Shown one piece after another: positions 13,057 through 31,436 of a stretch of 64,000 nucleotides of DNA. Both the position numbers and the translations under genes were made by a program. The DNA lies in contig JAHLKH010000147.1 of NCBI GenBank assembly GCA_025526915.1, positions 1 through 64,000 on the forward strand, in the 5' to 3' direction. Every line of letters starts with the position of its first letter. The stretch's first letter is position 1. A model generated the notes under the pieces. The model ran no database searches. It was not told where the DNA came from and saw only the letters and a program-made list of their open reading frames with translations. This DNA comes from Entophlyctis helioformis. Its lineage: Eukaryota > Chytridiomycota > Chytridiomycetes > Chytridiales > Chytriomycetaceae.

Positions 13057-16000
13057 ATGGGCAATCGACATTCCAAACAACACGCCGCCGCCTTGGCAGA
13101 AGCAGCAGAGCAGGCCAGCGCAGCCGCATCAGCAGCAGCACAGTCGCAAACACCCATCACCCTGTCGTCCTTTACCCCGCGCAAGCTGCTCGGCAAGGGC
13201 AACTTTGCCAAGGTGGTGCTCGTCGAGCACAAGGCGACCGGCACGCTCTATGCACTCAAGTACTCGAAAAAGATAAAGGCCCGGCTGGAGAACAAGGTGC
13301 ATCACATTGTCGAGGAGCGGAACCTGCTCGAGGAGGTGTGCCACACGTACATCTCGCAGCTGCGCTACTCGTTCCAGGACGACCTGTGTCTGTACATGGT
13401 GCTCGACTACATCGATGGCGGTGATCTGCGCTCGCATATGAAGAACAGGACGTGGAGCGAGGTATGTGCGCGGTAGCTTTGCAGCACTCTTCGGGGGCGT
13501 GGTGTGGCGTGGTGACTGACGGCCGCCTTTCTCTCGCATCGTGGCATGGTGCTGGATATGGCATGACGCTTCGCGCATTGGCCTTGGTTGCATTTGCTGT
13601 GCGTGGGGACTCGCCGGCCGAACGGTGTGGCAATCTGTGCGATCTGTGCTTCCACGGATACCTACTGGCGTGCTCCGTGTGTTCCGTATCGCAACATCGG
13701 CGTATCCGACTCCGCGTTACGACGGCGTCTCTGTGGCCGCGCCGCGCTTTGTGGCGGACCCGACCCCGGCTACGGACGGCGGCCCTTGCCAAACATTGTT
13801 GCTTTCTGTGCCGTCTGCGTCAACGTGACTCTTGCTCTTGCTGCATGGCATGGCCATCGTGGTACGCAATACGGACGGTCTCGACTCTTGTGTCTCTTTC
13901 GTACGATGCGCGATGCATTTCCGCTTCATGCAACCCACACGCATCGCTGGATGCCTGCCATCCACGATGCACGGATTTTTTCGGCCGAACCCACGAACGT
14001 GCATCGATCTCGATCGTGCCGCCTGTTACTATGTTTGCACATCCGACACCGCCACGTCTCTCGGTATACTGTGTCCGAGTAGAAAGAAGCCAGGATCGTA
14101 GTGTGCGAGGTTGCATCTGCACTCACATACCTGCACAACCGTCTGATTGTACATCGCGATATCAAGCCAGAGGCAAGTCAGAGACGCGGGCATGTATCTT
14201 GCCAGCCTGGGCCATGCACTTACCACCACTCATCTTCCATGCCTTGCAGAATGTGCTTCTGGACAAGGCAGGACACGCATACGTCTCAGACTTTAATGTT
14301 GCCATCCGACAGACGCCTGGCACACCCATACGGTCCATGGCAGGCACCGAGCCCTGTGGGTACTGGCATGACAACTGGCATCACGGCCAACGTCACTGAC
14401 ATGCCCTCGCGCAGACATGGCACCCGAGATCCTCAACCGCATCGGCTACTTTGCAGCCGTCGACTGGTGGTCACTTGGCGTCGTCCTGTTCGAGCTCGTC
14501 TACGGCGAACGCCCTTTTCGCACGCGCAACCGCCGCGAACTCATCAAACGCGGCACGTTCTCGTTTCCATACCGCCTGCCGCTCATCTCGGATGTGTGCC
14601 AAGACGCGATTGCGCGCTTCATGATGATGGAGCCCTCGCAGCGCATGGGATTCGGCGAGATTGGGTACAGCCTCATGCGCGCGCATCCGTTCTTTATCGA
14701 CATTTCGTGGTTTGCAGTGGATCGCAAGGAGCAGGCTCCTGTGTACATACCGGCGAGTATGGCCAACAATGCTCTGACGGTGCCGTCCGTCGTTCCCGGT
14801 GGTGGCGGCGGCGGCAGTAGTAGTGGTGTCCATGGTGGAGGCACGTCTGCGAATCTGGTTGTGCCGGCAACAGCAGCAGCCAATGTGCCACCGCCAACGA
14901 GTCCTGGCGGCGCTGGAGCAAGCGATGCGGGCAGCCCGGCCGTCAAGAGCGGGGCTGGCGGAGTGCCCGGATTTGAGATGGACATGTTTGACGAGGACAT
15001 TGAGCGCATGCTCAAGGATCCGACCAACAACATGTCGTCTGAAGGCAACGACACCGCCTCAGACGTGGTGGAAGAGTTTCTGGCAAGTCACGACGCGCTG
15101 GCATGCTCTTGCACAGTCAATCACCTTGAAAGCTGACCATGGATGGATGCGGCATTCCAGTACTACGACTTTGATCTGCACAATGGCCGCAGTGTCGAGC
15201 AACTGGCGGCAGACACGCGAGGGCTGGCGCGCACCAAGATATCGTCTCCAGTAAGCGACTGCGAGCTGCCCGACCACATCAACAGCTTCCACGGCACGAC
15301 AAACACGAGCTACGTTGTGCCAGGAAGCCGCCGTCCGTCCTTTACGGCTGCATCCGTCCGCCAGCGACGCGCAAGTGTTGCCAGCACGCATTCGCCTGTC
15401 ACGGCGTCTGGATCGCGCGATCTGGCTGCAAACAGCACGTCGGCCGGGGGAACTGGCCGTCATTCTGACCATCTCAGCAGCATCACCAAGCTGTTCAAGG
15501 GTCTGGGCTCACGCCGTCGGTCCAAAGGCCAATCCGACTACTTTAACCAGGGCGAGCTGTCGACCACCGGCACGCCTACCGTGATGAGCGCCAGTGCGGG
15601 TGTGTCCAGCACAGGGCAGGGAGCAGGAGGGTTGAACACGAGCGGCGGCGGCATCAATGTCGCCAACGGTGGCGCAGGCGGCAACGCATACAATGGCGGC
15701 ACTCAAGCACGCCGTCGATCCAGACGATTCTCCGAGACCGAGTCATCCACGGCAACGCGCGGCCAGTTGGATCATGTGGGCTCGGTGCCAGGAGTAGCGT
15801 CGCTCGTTCTCCAGCAGCAGCTGCAGCTACTTCACTTGCAGGCACAGGCACAGACGCAGGCACAGTTACAGCAACTGCAGCAGCAGCAGCAGCAGATCCA
15901 CCAGCAGCAAGTTCAGCAACAGCAACAGCAGCAGCAACAGCAGACGCCGCGCCGCCACCATCTGCCTCTGCGATGGGCCATACGATGCGAAGACGGCACT

Positions 16001-18317: not shown

Positions 18318-21300
18318 ATGAATCCGCCCAATCATTCGCTGCAGCAACAGCCACACAGCCCACAGTCGCCGCAGCAGCACCACGACCAGCCGCAGCAGCA
18401 GCCGCAGCCGCTGGCTGGCGTTCAATTCAGCCCAAGATACCAACCGCACCACGAGCAGCAGCACCACGAGCAGCAGCAGCACCACGAGCAGCAGCAGCAC
18501 CACGACCAGCAGCAGCACCACGACCAGCATATTCCTTCGAGAGCCACGGCTGGTCTGTGGGATCCTTCAACCACAAGCTTTGGGTCTGTGGAGATTCCTG
18601 CCGCAGGCACGGCTCAGCTCGGTGGGCATTTGCCGCTTTCCTCATTGGCGCTGCTCAATAGCCGTGGCAGCACGGCTGTCCAGCGCAGCAGCCAAGCGGG
18701 CCTGGCAGGACAGCAGCACCACCAGCACCACCAGCACCAGCACCAGCACCCTCAACAGCAGCAGCAGCATCACCACCACCAGCACCACCAGCACCACCAG
18801 CACCATCCTGGCCATCTCGCCATGTCTCACCCGCACCTCAACCAGCACCACAACCAGAGGCAGAGTTTGGGGCAAAGACCGCTGGGAATCGCTCAAGGGA
18901 CGCTCGACGAGCCCGCTGTCGTGTAAGTCCACCGCCTCGCTCCTTGTGTTTGCAGGCTGCTGCGCCGGTGTGGGTATGCAGGCTTGTGCGCCGAGTGTGG
19001 GACATGCGAGCATCACAGCCCAGCATCACCAGCACGACCACCACCAGCACGACCACCACCAGCACCAGCATCGTCGGCTTCATTCGGCTGCCCGCGGCGG
19101 GCACAATCACCATTGGTCACACCTCTCCTTCCTCACTTGGCAGAAAGCACCAGAAGGATCTGCCATGCCCAGCGGATTGTGCGTGGGGGTGCGCTGGTGA
19201 TTGTGCTGGTGGTCTGCTGGTTGCCTGCCCCAACCCGACCGCCCATAGCCGCCTGCAATCTGGGCTGCAATGCGTTGAGCCACTCGAGGCCAGAGGCCAG
19301 TGGTGACCATCCTGACGCTTCCTTCCTTTCTTTGCGCCATTCGACCTTCGACGTCGTCTCGTTGCCGCCTCATTTTCGCCTCGTCGACGGCGTCCCTGAC
19401 GGCCCTGATGGCCCTGACGGTCCAACCCAACATCACCCTCACAACTTCGAACCTTGGTACCTTTGGACCCGCGGACCCATACACTCACGGACCCACGCAC
19501 CAACCAACCCGGCCTTCCTGGCCCTACCTACCCGACCTTGACGCCGTCGCCATCATCGTCACCTCATCGTCGCCCTGCAACTCTCGATTTCGCCCTTTTG
19601 ATTTCGCTGTGACCACGGGTTCGCTGCCCACGCGTCAACGGACACAATCTCGGCGACAACCACCACTTCGTCACAGGATCCCGCTTGTGCGAACGGCCCC
19701 AAACAACGGCACAGACGGCGCCATGGCACACAGGTACATGCAGCTTGCAGCCCCGTTGGAACCAGAATATTTCACCAGGCCGATGAATTATTGGGTGCCT
19801 GCGAAGATGGCCGTTTCGCAGCCTGCTGATTTGTGGCGTGTGTGGCACTGCCATGTGACGATGCCGTTTCCTGTGCCCGCCTGCATGTCTGCCCGCCCGC
19901 CTGCCTGCCTGTCTGCCCGCCTGTCTGTCCGCCTGCCCGCCTCCCTGCGCAGGCTCGTGCTAGTCTTGCCTCTGTCTGCCCGCCAGCTTGGCCGGTCACG
20001 GCTGCGCCGGTTCATTCTGGCTTGGCTCGTGACACGTGAAAGCACTGCGCTGAATTGGGGCTTGTGGAGAGGGGCAGCGCGGTGGGCGACAGAAGCACAG
20101 TCGAACCAGCCACGCTGCGGCATCTTCTCGGGTGGCTGCTGGCCCTGCCATCATTGCTGCTTTGTCGTGCCTGCATGGACTGTGGATGCGTGTCTGCGGG
20201 CAATGCCGATGGACTGGGCTGTGCTGCTGCTGCTGCCGACTCCGTTTCGGCTGATGGCTTGATGGGCTGATGGGCTGATCCGTCGCCAGCCAGACGACGC
20301 CGTTGGCCAACGACCAGCCACCAGCCAGCCACCAGCCAGCCATCGCAGGCCATCGCAGGCCATCGCACGCCATCGCACGCCTGTATAGTCAGGCTGCTGG
20401 TCGATGGCACTGCACTGCCATCGCTGGTCGCCATGGCCATTGTCTGTCGCAGTCCCTGGCTCCACAGCGATCCACCCCCACGGCTGCATCCGCCCCCGTC
20501 TGCTGCCATCCAATCACCACCATGTCCACTGCTCTTGTTCTGCGGTCCTGCGGGTCTGCCCTTTCTCCACGGGCTTGTCCACATACTGACGCTTTTGTCG
20601 ACTCTGGCCTCTGCGACCACCAACGGCGACCAACGGCGACCAACGGCGACCAACGGACACTGCTGCGACCACCAACGGCGCAACAACCCCGTGCGGCTGC
20701 ACCGACACCGACACCGACTGCACCTGCACCTGCACCTGCACCTGCACCTGCACCTGCACCTGCACCTGCCCTGCACACAATCGCTGCATCGCCTTCTGCT
20801 GATGCGGCTGCTTGCCTGCAAACAAACGCAACAATCCCCTCCAACGGCATCGTCGACTGCCACGATATCGTCCTCGAAACCGCCGGCCGTCGTCAGGCTG
20901 CGGAATGCAGGCCGCATTGGCCCTGCCATCTCGCCGCTGGTGTCCGGGCCCGACTCGCTGCCCTCCGTCACCAAGCCGCTCGCAGCGTCCCATACAAGGT
21001 CGGTCTGCCGCCCGTCCCTGATTCGTGGTTCGGCGGCAGCAGAGCGCCATGTTGGGTCCATGACGTGGCGCATTCCTGTACCATTCCCTTGCAGGCCCTG
21101 CAGCCTGTCTGGCTTCGTCTGCCAAGCGAGGCTGGGCGGGTGGGGCATGTGGGCCGGGAAGCCTGCCGTGCCGCCTGCGCCCGTGCCGTTGCATCCCTCC
21201 CCCATCCCCTCTCCCGTCGACTGCCGCCTGCACCGACCCGCACCGGCCCGCACACCCGCACGTCCGCACCGACCCATTCGCATGGCCCCCATGACCGTCC

Positions 21301-22817: not shown

Positions 22818-25262
22818 TCAGAAACCCTCGGCGTGGGCAGTCGCGTATTGAACGCCGTCCACTCCAGTGTCCATGTCTGGTGGCGCATCTGCCGGCGTGG
22901 CCTCAATCTCATCATCATCGCCATCATCGCCATCGCGACTATCGCCGTCACTGCTGCTGCCTTTGCTCTCATACCCCTCGTCGTCCGTACTGGCTACGGA
23001 CTCTTGCACATCCTCGGCATCCCGCTTGACTGCGTCACCGTCATCCCGTCGATCGAGCTCAATCACCTGCACCTTCTCTGCCACGCGCACACTGCCGTCG
23101 GATGCCGTCACCGGCAAGCGTTGCTTGACAACGAGGTACCGTGTCCGACGGCCGCCGCTCATCCATCTCATACCGCCCATGCCGTCTTTGTCGCCTTTGT
23201 TGTGTGTCTTTCTGCGGCTGCCCGTGTAGCGCGACGGCGATACAGGCGTCGGTGTAATGATGATCGTTGTTGTGTGGCGCGGTGTCGATGCTGACGATGC
23301 TGTGGTCGTTGGCGCTGGTGTGCGCGACACTGCCTTGCCTTGCAGTGGTGGGATGGGCGAAGCTGACGGCGTTTGACCGTATTTGGGCAGCGATGTTGTC
23401 TTGGGAGAAGCGGCAGACGCAGCCTTGGTGCTCTGTGGCTTGCTGCTGATGGCAACAGTCGTGGTCTTGGGAACAGCAGGCTTGGTGGTTGACGCGGCAG
23501 ATGCAGCCTTGGTGGTCTGTGGCCTGCTGCTTATCGCAACAGTCGTGGTCTTGGGAACAGCAGGCTTGGTGGTTGACGCGGCAGACGCAGCCTTGGTGCT
23601 CTGTGGCTTGCTGCTGATGGCAACAGTCGTGGTCTTGGGAACAGCAGGCTTGGTGGTTGACGCGGCAGATGCAGCCTTGGTGGTCTGTGGCTTGCTGCTG
23701 ATGGCAACAGTCGTGGTCTTGGCAACGGTTGGCTTGGTGGTTGACGCAGCAGACGCAGCCTTGGTGGTCTGTGGCTTGCTGCTGATCGCAACAGTCGTGG
23801 TCTTGGCAACGGTTGGCTTGGTGGTTGACGCGGCAGATGCAGTCTTGGTGGTCTGTGGCTTGCTGCTGATCGCAACAGTCGTGGTCTTGGGTGGCGATGT
23901 TGTCTTGGGAGAAGCGGCAGATGCAGTCTTGGTGGTCTGTGGCTTGCTGCTGATCGCAACAGTCGTGGTCTTGGCAACGGTTGGCTTGGTGGTTGACGCG
24001 GCAGATGCAGCCTTGGTGCTCTGTGGCTTGCTGCTGATCGCAACAGTCGTGGTCTTGACGTCTGGTGGCGGATGCCTTGGTGGTCTGTGCTGGCTATCGC
24101 AACAGTCGTGGTCTTGGGTGGCGATGTTGTCTTGGGAGAAGCGGCAGACGCAGCCTTGGTGGTCTGTGGCTTGCTGCTGATGGCAACAGTCGTGGTCTTG
24201 GCAACGGTTGGCTTGGTGGTTGACGCAGCAGACGCAGTCTTGGTGGTCTGTGGCTTGCTGCTGATCGCAACAGTCGTGGTCTTGGCAACGGTTGGCTTGG
24301 TGGTTGACGCGGCTGACGCAGTCTTGGTGGTCTGTGGCTTGCTGCTGATCGCAACAGTCGTGGTCGTGGGAACAGCAGGGGCAGGCTTGGTGGTCGACGC
24401 GGCAGATGCAGCCTTGGTGCTCTGTGGCTTGCTGCTGATCGCAACAGTCGTGGTCTTGGCAACGGTTGGCTCGGTGGTTGACGCGGCTGAAGTGACAGTG
24501 GCCTCAGGGACAGGCAGTGACACAATCGCGCGCAGATAGTTGGTCTCCATGTTTGGCGCAACTGCATCGATCTTGCAGTTGGGGAACCACCTTGAATGGT
24601 GCCATAATGGGAACAGGTCAGCGGCATTGTCCAAACAGCGTGGATATCATTCGCGTTGACTTACATGGCGCCAGGCAGATCGTACAATGGCGTGACTTGG
24701 TCGATCCAGGCATCCGCCAGTTCGACCCACTTGCGCTCGTCTTTGCAGACAGCTGTCTTATCCGACCATCCGCTCGTCTTGTACCCAGCCTTGGTCCACT
24801 CGTCCGTCGTCTGCGGCTTGTCCGTGATGACAAAGGCAGAGTTGGCCGTTCCAGTGAGCGCAACCTGTGTGCCGTCGATCGAGACATGAGCGTACACCGA
24901 GCCGTACGTGCCCGAGGCGTTGGCTTGGATAGCCAGAACCCATGGGCCATCGCCCGTCACCGTGATTGTCTTCTTGTCAATCAGATCCGTGCCGGTCTTG
25001 TCCACACCGACTTTGCCAGCCACGCGGACCTCGCCATTGACATAGGCAGTGTAGGACGTCGCACCTGTGGCGGTTCATGGCCATGGGCGGCTGGATGTGA
25101 GTAGCGGCACATTTGGGCATGCGGTGTTCGAATCGGCAGACGCTTACAGTCTTGTGCACCAGAGAAACGCAGAACAAGGTCGTGCGTGTCAGTAGCAGCG
25201 CCGTTCGCTAAAGTCGCCAGTGAGCTGGCAAGTGCGAGAGCGAGAGCCGCAAAGGAAGACAT
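22818..25262 (-). CDS. Secreted protein with 28-residue Thr/Lys/Ala/Ser repeat stalk
   Basis: Model: complement(join(22818..24590, 24665..25064, 25148..25262)), about 762 aa with one base restored near 24085. The Met at 25262 begins a clear signal peptide (SFAALALALASSLATLANG). The mature N-terminus (about 150 aa) has SYTAYVNGEV, GDGPWVLAIQANASG, GYKTSGWSDKTAVCKDE and WFPNCKIDAVAP. It looks like an extracellular beta-sandwich or lectin-like domain that I cannot name. Residues of about 185-560 are tandem 28-aa repeats (KTTTVAISSKPQ + TTKAASAASTTKP). The C-terminus is charged and acidic, without a hydrophobic GPI-type end. Both introns have GTAAGC/GTAAGT donors. It is convergent with the velvet gene. 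A cell-surface or wall role is inference. Confidence 0.72.
23395..24500 (-). repeat. 84-bp coding minisatellite
   Basis: Units recur every 84 nt (for example at about 23503, 23587, 23671 and 23755), about 13 copies. Two main variants differ in KPAVPK versus KPTVAK, and some units carry a SPKTTSPPK insert. Most units keep the frame. One irregular unit at about 24060-24105 breaks it by one base. Confidence 0.9.
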
Positions 25263-30671: not shown

Positions 30672-31436
30672 CTAGTTCTTGGCCTGGAGCGACTTGACGA
30701 GGGCAATGTACTGGGCCTGGGCATCGGCGTTGGAGGTGCCCTTGAGCTTGGTCCAGGCGTCCCACTTGGCCTTGCCCTGCAGGTCGAACATGCCGGGGCG
30801 CTCTGCGGGCGGTAACAGCGGGCGGGCGGGCGGGCGTGCGGGCGGAAGCGGCAAGTGGCGGGGGCACAAGAGCAAGCGCGCCAGGCAAGCCGGGGTGCAC
30901 ACAGAGGGGCGGCGGCAGAGGGGCGAGAGAGGCAAGCAAGCGAGAGAGGCAGGCAGGCAGGCAGATGGGTTAGACACACAGGCAGGGCAGCCAAGACGCA
31001 ACCGACGGCCACAACCGAACAGACGCACCGGTGGTGTTGTCGCCGACAATCGACTGCTTGAAGAGCGCGTAGAGCTGGAGGAGCTCGTCGTTGTTGGGCT
31101 TGTACGTGAGGCTCTTGACGTCGTTGGCGGCCTGCACGAACTCGGCCTGGTGGTTGGTGGCGGTTGTAGTAGCGGTTGTAGTAGTGGTTGTAGTAGTGGT
31201 TGGTAGTGGTTTGCAGGGTGAGACACTGGAGACACTGGCGGGCAAGCAGGCGAGCAAGCAGGCAAGCGGCCAGTCTGGCTGCCAGCCAGAGCAAGATCCT
31301 CTTGCTGCGAAGCAGGCTGCAGACACTAACAGACACAAGCAGCTGCTGCACACACAGACACTAACAGCCGACACACACAGACACACTAACAGCACACAGC
31401 ACATACGTTGCCAGTGGAAGCGGGGTCAGCAGACAT
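30672..31436 (-). CDS. ACB1: Acyl-CoA-binding protein
   Basis: Model: complement(join(30672..30802, 31029..31146, 31407..31436)), exactly 93 codons (92 aa), the usual size of single-domain ACBPs. The 10-codon first exon ([10 protein letters not shown]) is joined to [33 protein letters not shown], then [17 protein letters not shown] and [13 protein letters not shown], all in family order with the acyl-CoA-contacting Tyr, Lys and Trp positions present. Introns are 226 and 260 nt with donors GTGCGT and GTATGT and are full of short tandem repeats. Role: cytosolic binding and transport of medium and long acyl-CoA esters. Confidence 0.95.
31151..31210. repeat. GTAGTGGTT tandem repeat in ACBP intron 1
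   Basis: Short imperfect copies of GGTTGTAGTAGTGG at the 3' end of the 260-nt intron, close to the acceptor on the - strand. Confidence 0.75.

What the first reader, a model, noticed from the sequence alone, without database searches (positions are those of the whole stretch)
13484..14077. 594-nt tract with no AG dinucleotide before a splice acceptor (STK32 intron 1)
Read base by base, the + strand has no AG from 13484 to 14077. The first AGs after it are 14078-79 and 14081-82; the latter is the acceptor that rebuilds the kinase helix KEARIVVCEVASALTYL in frame. Such AG-exclusion zones are known to mark the span between a distant branch point and the 3' splice site. A CTGAC motif at 13516-13520 sits near the start of the tract, which would put the branch A about 560 nt from the acceptor, far beyond the usual 20-45 nt seen in the other introns here.
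Basis: partly seen in the sequence, partly recalled or inferred. Interest (0 to 1): 0.75.

Follow-up and report, generated by a model that had tools for sequence, protein, structure and literature searches.

The report
Very long AG-free splice-acceptor zone
In a water fungus, one intron of a kinase gene has almost 600 letters with no 'AG' before the real splice acceptor, which best fits a splicing branch site placed unusually far (about 560 letters) upstream; such distant branch sites are known in human genes, but this one would be longer than those mapped there.

Summary
The genome matches Entophlyctis helioformis, a chytrid. Intron 13462-14082 is well supported as a gene model: the deposited protein has this junction and paralogues keep an intron there.

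The genome's branch motif is CTRAC. The 621-nt intron holds one: CTGAC, A at 13519, 57 nt after the donor, 563 nt before the acceptor, 35 nt into the tract. The intron's longest pyrimidine run follows it. No YTNAY lies in the last 150 nt. Among 50 hand-curated introns, 33 have CTRAC; in 31 the acceptor is the first AG at least 8 nt after it. In 28 of these (finding and introns chosen for long tracts left out) AG density is 2/828 nt downstream, 43/1734 upstream.

It is a known kind, unusually long, at the end of a continuum (14-205 nt) here.

The parts
13057..13461 (+). STK32/YANK-like kinase exon 1 (135 aa, ends ...KNRTWSE)
   Evidence: Pfam PF00069 8.7e-57 for the spliced protein; identical N-terminus in deposited E. 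helioformis protein P0121
13462..14082 (+). intron 1, 621 nt, GTATGT...GTAG
   Evidence: junction TWSE|KEAR identical in P0121; ungapped against P. stewartii P0001; intron at same position in paralogues L037/L038
13516..13520 (+). predicted branch site CTGAC, branch A at 13519
   Evidence: only CTRAY and only CTNAC in the intron; CTGAC is the most enriched motif (by z) of short introns in this genome
13526..13535 (+). pyrimidine tract CCTTTCTCTC, longest in the intron
13484..14077 (+). AG-free tract (AG exclusion zone)
14078..14079 (+). skipped AG (GAG); its use would put a TAG stop in frame
   Evidence: sequence; a GAG 3 nt before the acceptor is also passed over in paralogue intron YANKp37i3
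14081..14082 (+). acceptor AG (TAG)
   Evidence: gives the in-frame kinase sequence without a stop; matches P0121
14083..14172 (+). kinase exon 2 (KEARIVVCEVASALTYL...)

Best explanation
Intron 1 of this kinase gene is spliced from a distant branch point. U2 snRNP pairs with CTGAC (branch A 13519), which with its pyrimidine tract (13526-13535) sits 57 nt from the donor, much as in a short intron. The lariat forms there, and the second step searches downstream for the first usable AG, 563 nt away. An AG arising in between would tend to be taken as acceptor and spoil the kinase, so selection has kept the whole span AG-free. The GAG at 14078-79 loses to the TAG 3 nt later. Shown: the AG-free tract, the motif positions, the junction in the deposited protein, the first-AG rule in other introns here. 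Inferred: that A13519 is the branch nucleotide, that scanning is linear, that purifying selection made the gap.
For: Unique CTRAY in 621 nt, 35 nt into the tract, none near the acceptor; 40 of the 49 other curated introns have a YTNAY 12-60 nt from the acceptor, this one has none within 150 nt. The longest pyrimidine run starts 7 nt after the branch A. AG 43/1734 nt upstream against 2/828 downstream of the 3'-most CTRAC in 28 introns (Fisher p 7e-6); 0 of 5000 random pseudo-branch placements reach that low density. First-AG rule 31 of 33. Median first AG exclusion zone 38 nt (34 of 44 introns that have such an AG) against 13 for the second (19 of 44); for all nine other dinucleotides tested the two medians differ by 7 nt or less. 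Other introns whose only CTRAC is far away: CK1 205, ACBP 167, RPL13a 167 (these three were chosen for long AG-free tracts), Ras35b 91, Ras31a 80. Cactin, Tls1/C9orf78 and SDE2 domains, whose proteins promote branch-distant splicing in S. pombe (PMC9508853, abstract and passages), are encoded. The names CK1, ACBP, RPL13a, LeuRS and AAC are my own recognition of the exons, from no search.
Against: No RNA or lariat data. A CTRAC is expected 0.88 times in 621 nt by chance, so its presence alone means little; by simple arithmetic its lying in the first 36 of about 590 positions has a chance of about 6%. Six of 44 curated introns (finding and long-tract rows left out) lack a YTNAY 12-60 nt from the acceptor, so other branch sites are used here. 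Pseudo-motif controls are mixed: TGGC and CTGC show no contrast, but CG[N]Y gave 6/902 downstream against 61/2775 upstream, and TC[AG]AC 0/320 against 4/407, so part of the contrast comes from nearness to the acceptor. AG-free tracts of 150 nt or more, taken without gene models (34 ending in YAG), showed no clear CTRAC peak at their start. AAC intron 2 and a LeuRS intron have AG-free runs of 228 and 165 nt with a motif at 66 (CTGAC) and 68 (CTCAC) nt; AAC intron 2 also has CTGAT at 218.
Confidence: 0.77

Rival explanations
1. The branch point is a non-consensus site near the acceptor, for example GTTAC (A 14028, 54 nt) or CCGAC (A 14046, 36 nt), and the AG-free span further upstream has another cause.
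For: 9 of 49 other curated introns have no YTNAY within 12-60 nt, so weaker or more distant sites are used; GTTAC differs from YTNAY at one position (sequence); AAC intron 2 shows a long AG-free run with CTGAC at 66 nt.
Against: Leaves about 520 nt without AG unexplained; in 28 curated introns AGs occur upstream of the 3'-most CTRAC (43 in 1734 nt); the paralogue introns at the same position have 5 and 3 internal AGs in 130 and 63 nt.
Confidence: 0.12
2. The gap is compositional or comes from an AG-less repeat, unrelated to splicing (as Gooding et al. saw for a human case).
For: A is low (13.8%), and other long AG-free runs occur, some apparently in coding or unassigned DNA.
Against: 0 against 23.7 expected at that composition, while GA, AC, AT and CA are not depleted; no internal repeats; a DNA search of the own genome found only this place; the tract ends at the acceptor.
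Confidence: 0.06
3. Two or more branch points are used, for example CTGAC at 13519 and TTCAT at 13928 (154 nt), giving regulated or inefficient splicing.
For: TTCAT is the only other YTNAY in the intron; several introns with long AG-free zones use more than one branch point in human (PMC2991248, passages).
Against: TTCAT departs from the genome's CTRAC consensus; an AG-free zone starting 444 nt upstream of it would still need the distant site.
Confidence: 0.05

Closest known systems
Human distant-branch-point exons with AG exclusion zones (Gooding et al. 2006, PMC1431707; Corvelo et al. 2010, PMC2991248)
   Same: AG-free zone from branch site to acceptor; branch motif at upstream end; adjacent pyrimidine tract; AGs tolerated upstream; no good motif near the acceptor
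   Different: A chytrid, not a mammal; predicted spacing 563 nt against mapped sites up to about 400 nt. The zone (594) is exceeded by the human PTP-sigma zone of 1126 nt, whose predicted branch sites include -1079 and -829 but also -288 and -171. The pyrimidine tract is only 10 nt; alternative splicing unknown
Branch-distant introns of S. pombe needing Sde2, Cay1/Cactin and Tls1 (PMC9508853)
   Same: Fungal introns with wide branch-acceptor spacing; domains of all three factors are encoded here
   Different: There 'distant' means tens of nt (for example 24 or 39 nt in the passages seen); no unusual RNA structure bridges the gap here (fold z +1.03); dependence on these factors untested
Ordinary short introns of the same genome
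   Same: CTRAC branch motif and a similar donor-branch distance (57 nt here)
   Different: Motif-acceptor distance 15-40 nt typical in short ab initio introns

Membership tests
Distant-branch-point intron with AG exclusion zone | AG-free zone of at least 100 nt upstream of the acceptor | tested here: met
   594 nt, apart from the GAG 3 nt before the acceptor
Distant-branch-point intron with AG exclusion zone | species-consensus branch motif at the upstream end of the zone | tested here: met
   CTGAC at 13516-13520, only CTRAY in the intron
Distant-branch-point intron with AG exclusion zone | no good branch motif near the acceptor | tested here: met
   no YTNAY in the last 150 nt
Distant-branch-point intron with AG exclusion zone | pyrimidine tract adjacent to the distant branch site | tested here: met
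   10-nt run 13526-13535, longest in the intron, but short
Distant-branch-point intron with AG exclusion zone | AGs not excluded upstream of the branch point | tested here: met
   AGs at 13475-76 and 13483-84 between donor and motif
Distant-branch-point intron with AG exclusion zone | branch nucleotide mapped on lariat RNA | not testable with these tools
   no RNA data
Distant-branch-point intron with AG exclusion zone | associated alternative splicing | not testable with these tools
   no RNA data; retention would meet an in-frame TAG at 13474-13476
Distant-branch-point intron with AG exclusion zone | AG-free zone conserved in related genomes | not tested
   I had no DNA of related chytrids; only their proteins were found
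Structure-bridged distant acceptor | RNA between branch and acceptor folds better than shuffled | tested here: not met
   z = +1.03, 86 of 100 shuffles fold at least as well

The most novel reading that the evidence does not exclude
This chytrid has a genome-wide class of introns in which the acceptor has drifted up to hundreds of nt downstream of the branch site, held only by an AG-free corridor; STK32 intron 1 at 563 nt would be a longer branch-acceptor spacing than any mapped one in the papers I saw, and the class would show that second-step scanning in fungi has no tight upper limit.
Probability: 0.4. Interest if true: 0.7.

Novelty: new member of a known kind. Interest (0 to 1): 0.5.

Why it matters
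How far the spliceosome can search for a 3' splice site, and whether it scans linearly, has been studied at spacings of tens of nt in yeasts and up to about 400 nt in human. A natural fungal intron with one consensus branch site, no AG for 558 nt and no unusual structure would be a clean test of linear scanning. It also suggests that methods which look for a branch site only in the last 50-100 nt will misjudge such introns.

Tried and rejected
AG-less repeat or transposon: rejected, only one match in the own genome and no internal repeats. Intronic non-coding RNA: no Rfam match in the window at gathering threshold. Structured bridge: no excess folding. Coding tract: the 164-aa open frame inside it has no Pfam match. 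Clear CTRAC peak at the start of long AG-free tracts: not seen when tracts are taken without gene models, so I turned to introns anchored by conserved exons. CTRAC followed by long AG-free runs is only mildly enriched in the fetched DNA (over 150 nt: 1.48% of 745 against 0.59% of 15330 control RAC sites; sites in one tract are counted repeatedly). The ab initio gene finder merged genes and was used only for 130 short introns to find the motif. Velvet gene: the deposited protein P0201 starts inside the tract 20468-20895, so that tract cannot be claimed as a second case. Sde2: the yeast-type model PF13019 gave nothing (whose controls did not ring either); PF22782 did.

How the 50 introns were chosen: the finding; 2 of the same gene; 5 chosen because their AG-free tract was long (out of 17 tracts printed); 20 Ras-family introns chosen without regard to AG; 6 in paralogues; 16 from loci mostly picked for long gaps between exon matches. 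Not every intron in the fetched loci is in the set: I used those whose two ends I could read. Left out are 3 listed rows with unresolved donors (L032, L047, L055), the introns of L028, L029, L049, L050, L052 and L054, several further introns in loci that were used, and L039, nearly identical to L038. Also left out: the AAC 5' tract (CTGAC 192 nt from the acceptor) and a second LeuRS intron (CTGAC 155 nt), whose donors I did not resolve. Long introns here are not AG-free in general: Prot42a (285 nt) has 13 internal AGs and CTGAC at 27 nt, and the roughly 1-kb intron of L032 holds many AGs. The AG-density tests leave out the finding and the long-tract introns.

Homologues at the junction: 7 of 8 aligned proteins read across it with a difference of at most two residues; P0015 (B. 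dendrobatidis) lacks 31 columns there, which I take for a gene-model error.

Reading: PMC1431707 passages and one section; PMC2991248, PMC9508853 and PMC10638238 passages; all other papers in search listings only. Seven paper searches were answered; by title and start of abstract none listed is about distant branch points in chytrids, which is no proof that no such paper exists.

Full report
What is there. The + strand has no AG between 13484 and 14077. This is the longest AG-free run on either strand of the window and of the further 200 kb of the same genome that I fetched. At the tract's own composition 23.7 AG are expected, and none of 5000 shuffles was AG-free. Using the much lower AG density of curated introns upstream of their branch motif, the chance of a 594-nt gap is still about 3e-7 per start. 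Markov models of the genome (orders 3 and 5) never exceeded 198 nt in 3 Mb, and an intron-trained order-2 model reached 328.

Organism and gene. The window is contig C147 of a 29.6 Mb, 482-contig genome. A deposited protein of Entophlyctis helioformis (BC831DRAFT_474826, P0121) is 100% identical to the window's kinase over 92% of my 719-aa model and lies on a 69,601-base contig; another E. helioformis kinase sits on a contig of 17,064 bases, the length of C365 here. The taxonomy tool places the species in Chytridiomycota. The gene encodes a protein kinase (PF00069, 8.7e-57) of the STK32/YANK group judging by the names of some homologues.

The intron. P0121 reads ...KNRTWSEKEARIVVCEVASALTYL... 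exactly as predicted from a junction 13461/14083; what evidence the depositors used I do not know. Polyrhizophydium stewartii P0001 aligns without a gap there; 7 of 8 aligned homologues read across it with at most two residues' difference, and P0015 lacks a stretch there. Two paralogues (L037, L038) have introns at the same place, 130 and 63 nt long, with motifs CTAAT and CTGAT 49 and 15 nt from the acceptor; so the position is old, and the long form is seen in this copy. Retention would run into TAG at 13474-13476.

Branch motif. In 130 short ab initio introns CTGAC occurs in 54, in the zone 12-55 nt before the acceptor, against 6.2 expected, and CTAAC in 14 against 0.6. STK32 intron 1 has one CTRAY, CTGAC with A 13519, and one further YTNAY, TTCAT with A 13928. 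CTGAC lies 57 nt from the donor and 563 nt from the acceptor. The longest pyrimidine run of the intron, CCTTTCTCTC, begins 7 nt after the A.

Do other introns of this genome obey the rule? I curated 50 introns by hand from conserved exons. Of 33 with a CTRAC at least 12 nt from the acceptor, the acceptor is the first AG at least 8 nt after it in 31. The two exceptions: this intron passes over GAG for TAG 3 nt later; paralogue intron YANKp37i3 passes over an AAG 8-9 nt after the motif's A and a GAG 3 nt before its CAG. Leaving out the finding and the introns chosen for long tracts, AG is found 43 times in 1734 nt upstream and 2 times in 828 nt downstream of the motif (28 introns; Fisher p 7e-6; 0 of 5000 random placements as low). 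Pseudo-motifs give mixed results: TGGC and CTGC show no contrast, but CG[N]Y shows 6/902 against 61/2775, so nearness to the acceptor explains part of it. The first exclusion zone has a median of 38 nt for AG against 13 for the second, in the manner of Gooding et al. for human; for the nine other dinucleotides tested the two medians differ by 7 nt or less.

Continuum. In the curated set the CTRAC-acceptor distance runs from 14 to 205 nt before this intron's 563. In the Ras set, picked without regard to AG, 6 of 12 introns with CTRAC exceed 50 nt. Cases chosen for long AG-free tracts with their only CTRAC far away are CK1 (205), ACBP (167) and RPL13a (167, which also has CTCAC at 131). In ACBP and RPL13a, as here, the motif is 43-58 nt from the donor; in CK1 it is 186 nt. 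Over 30 introns with a single CTRAC, intron length correlates with both spacings (Spearman 0.62 with donor-branch, 0.76 with branch-acceptor), so growth is not confined to the 3' part.

Mechanism. The simplest account is a short donor-branch module with a far acceptor found as the first usable AG, and selection against any AG between. The genome encodes Cactin, Tls1/C9orf78 and SDE2 domains, the factors that promote branch-distant splicing in S. pombe (PMC9508853, passages). There is no sign of a folded bridge. Branch use itself is inferred.

Comparison. Mapped human distant branch points lie up to about 400 nt away (PMC1431707, PMC2991248, PMC10638238, passages); AG exclusion zones as long as 1126 nt are known there by computation. 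So the kind is known; what is new is the lineage and, if confirmed, the distance.

Noticed in passing
window 30803-31028, - strand: Intron of an acyl-CoA-binding-protein-like gene is AG-free over its whole 226 nt, with its only CTRAC (CTAAC) 167 nt from the acceptor; the protein name is my recognition, not a search result.
   Followed up: partly
window 19300-19674 and 20467-20894, + strand: Two further long AG-free runs (spacings 376 and 429) upstream of a velvet-factor gene, each holding CTGAC and ending in CACAG or GTCAG; the deposited velvet protein P0201 begins inside the second, so their nature is open.
   Followed up: partly
window 14173 and 15083, + strand; C1 intron of an ADP/ATP-carrier-like gene: GC-AG introns with GCAAGT donors: two in the kinase gene and one in the carrier-like gene, whose name is my recognition.
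   Followed up: no
G000, e.g. C133/C397, C148/C195, C3/C412: Pairs of contigs give matches with identical scores, so the assembly probably holds allelic or duplicated contigs.
   Followed up: no
L022, L024, L030, L033, L035: Six of the 20 curated Ras-family introns (81-141 nt) have no AG between donor and acceptor at all; wide AG-free zones look common in this genome.
   Followed up: partly
window 23383-24634: Long tandemly repeated open frames (AASTTKP.../SSKPQTTK...) on overlapping strands.
   Followed up: no
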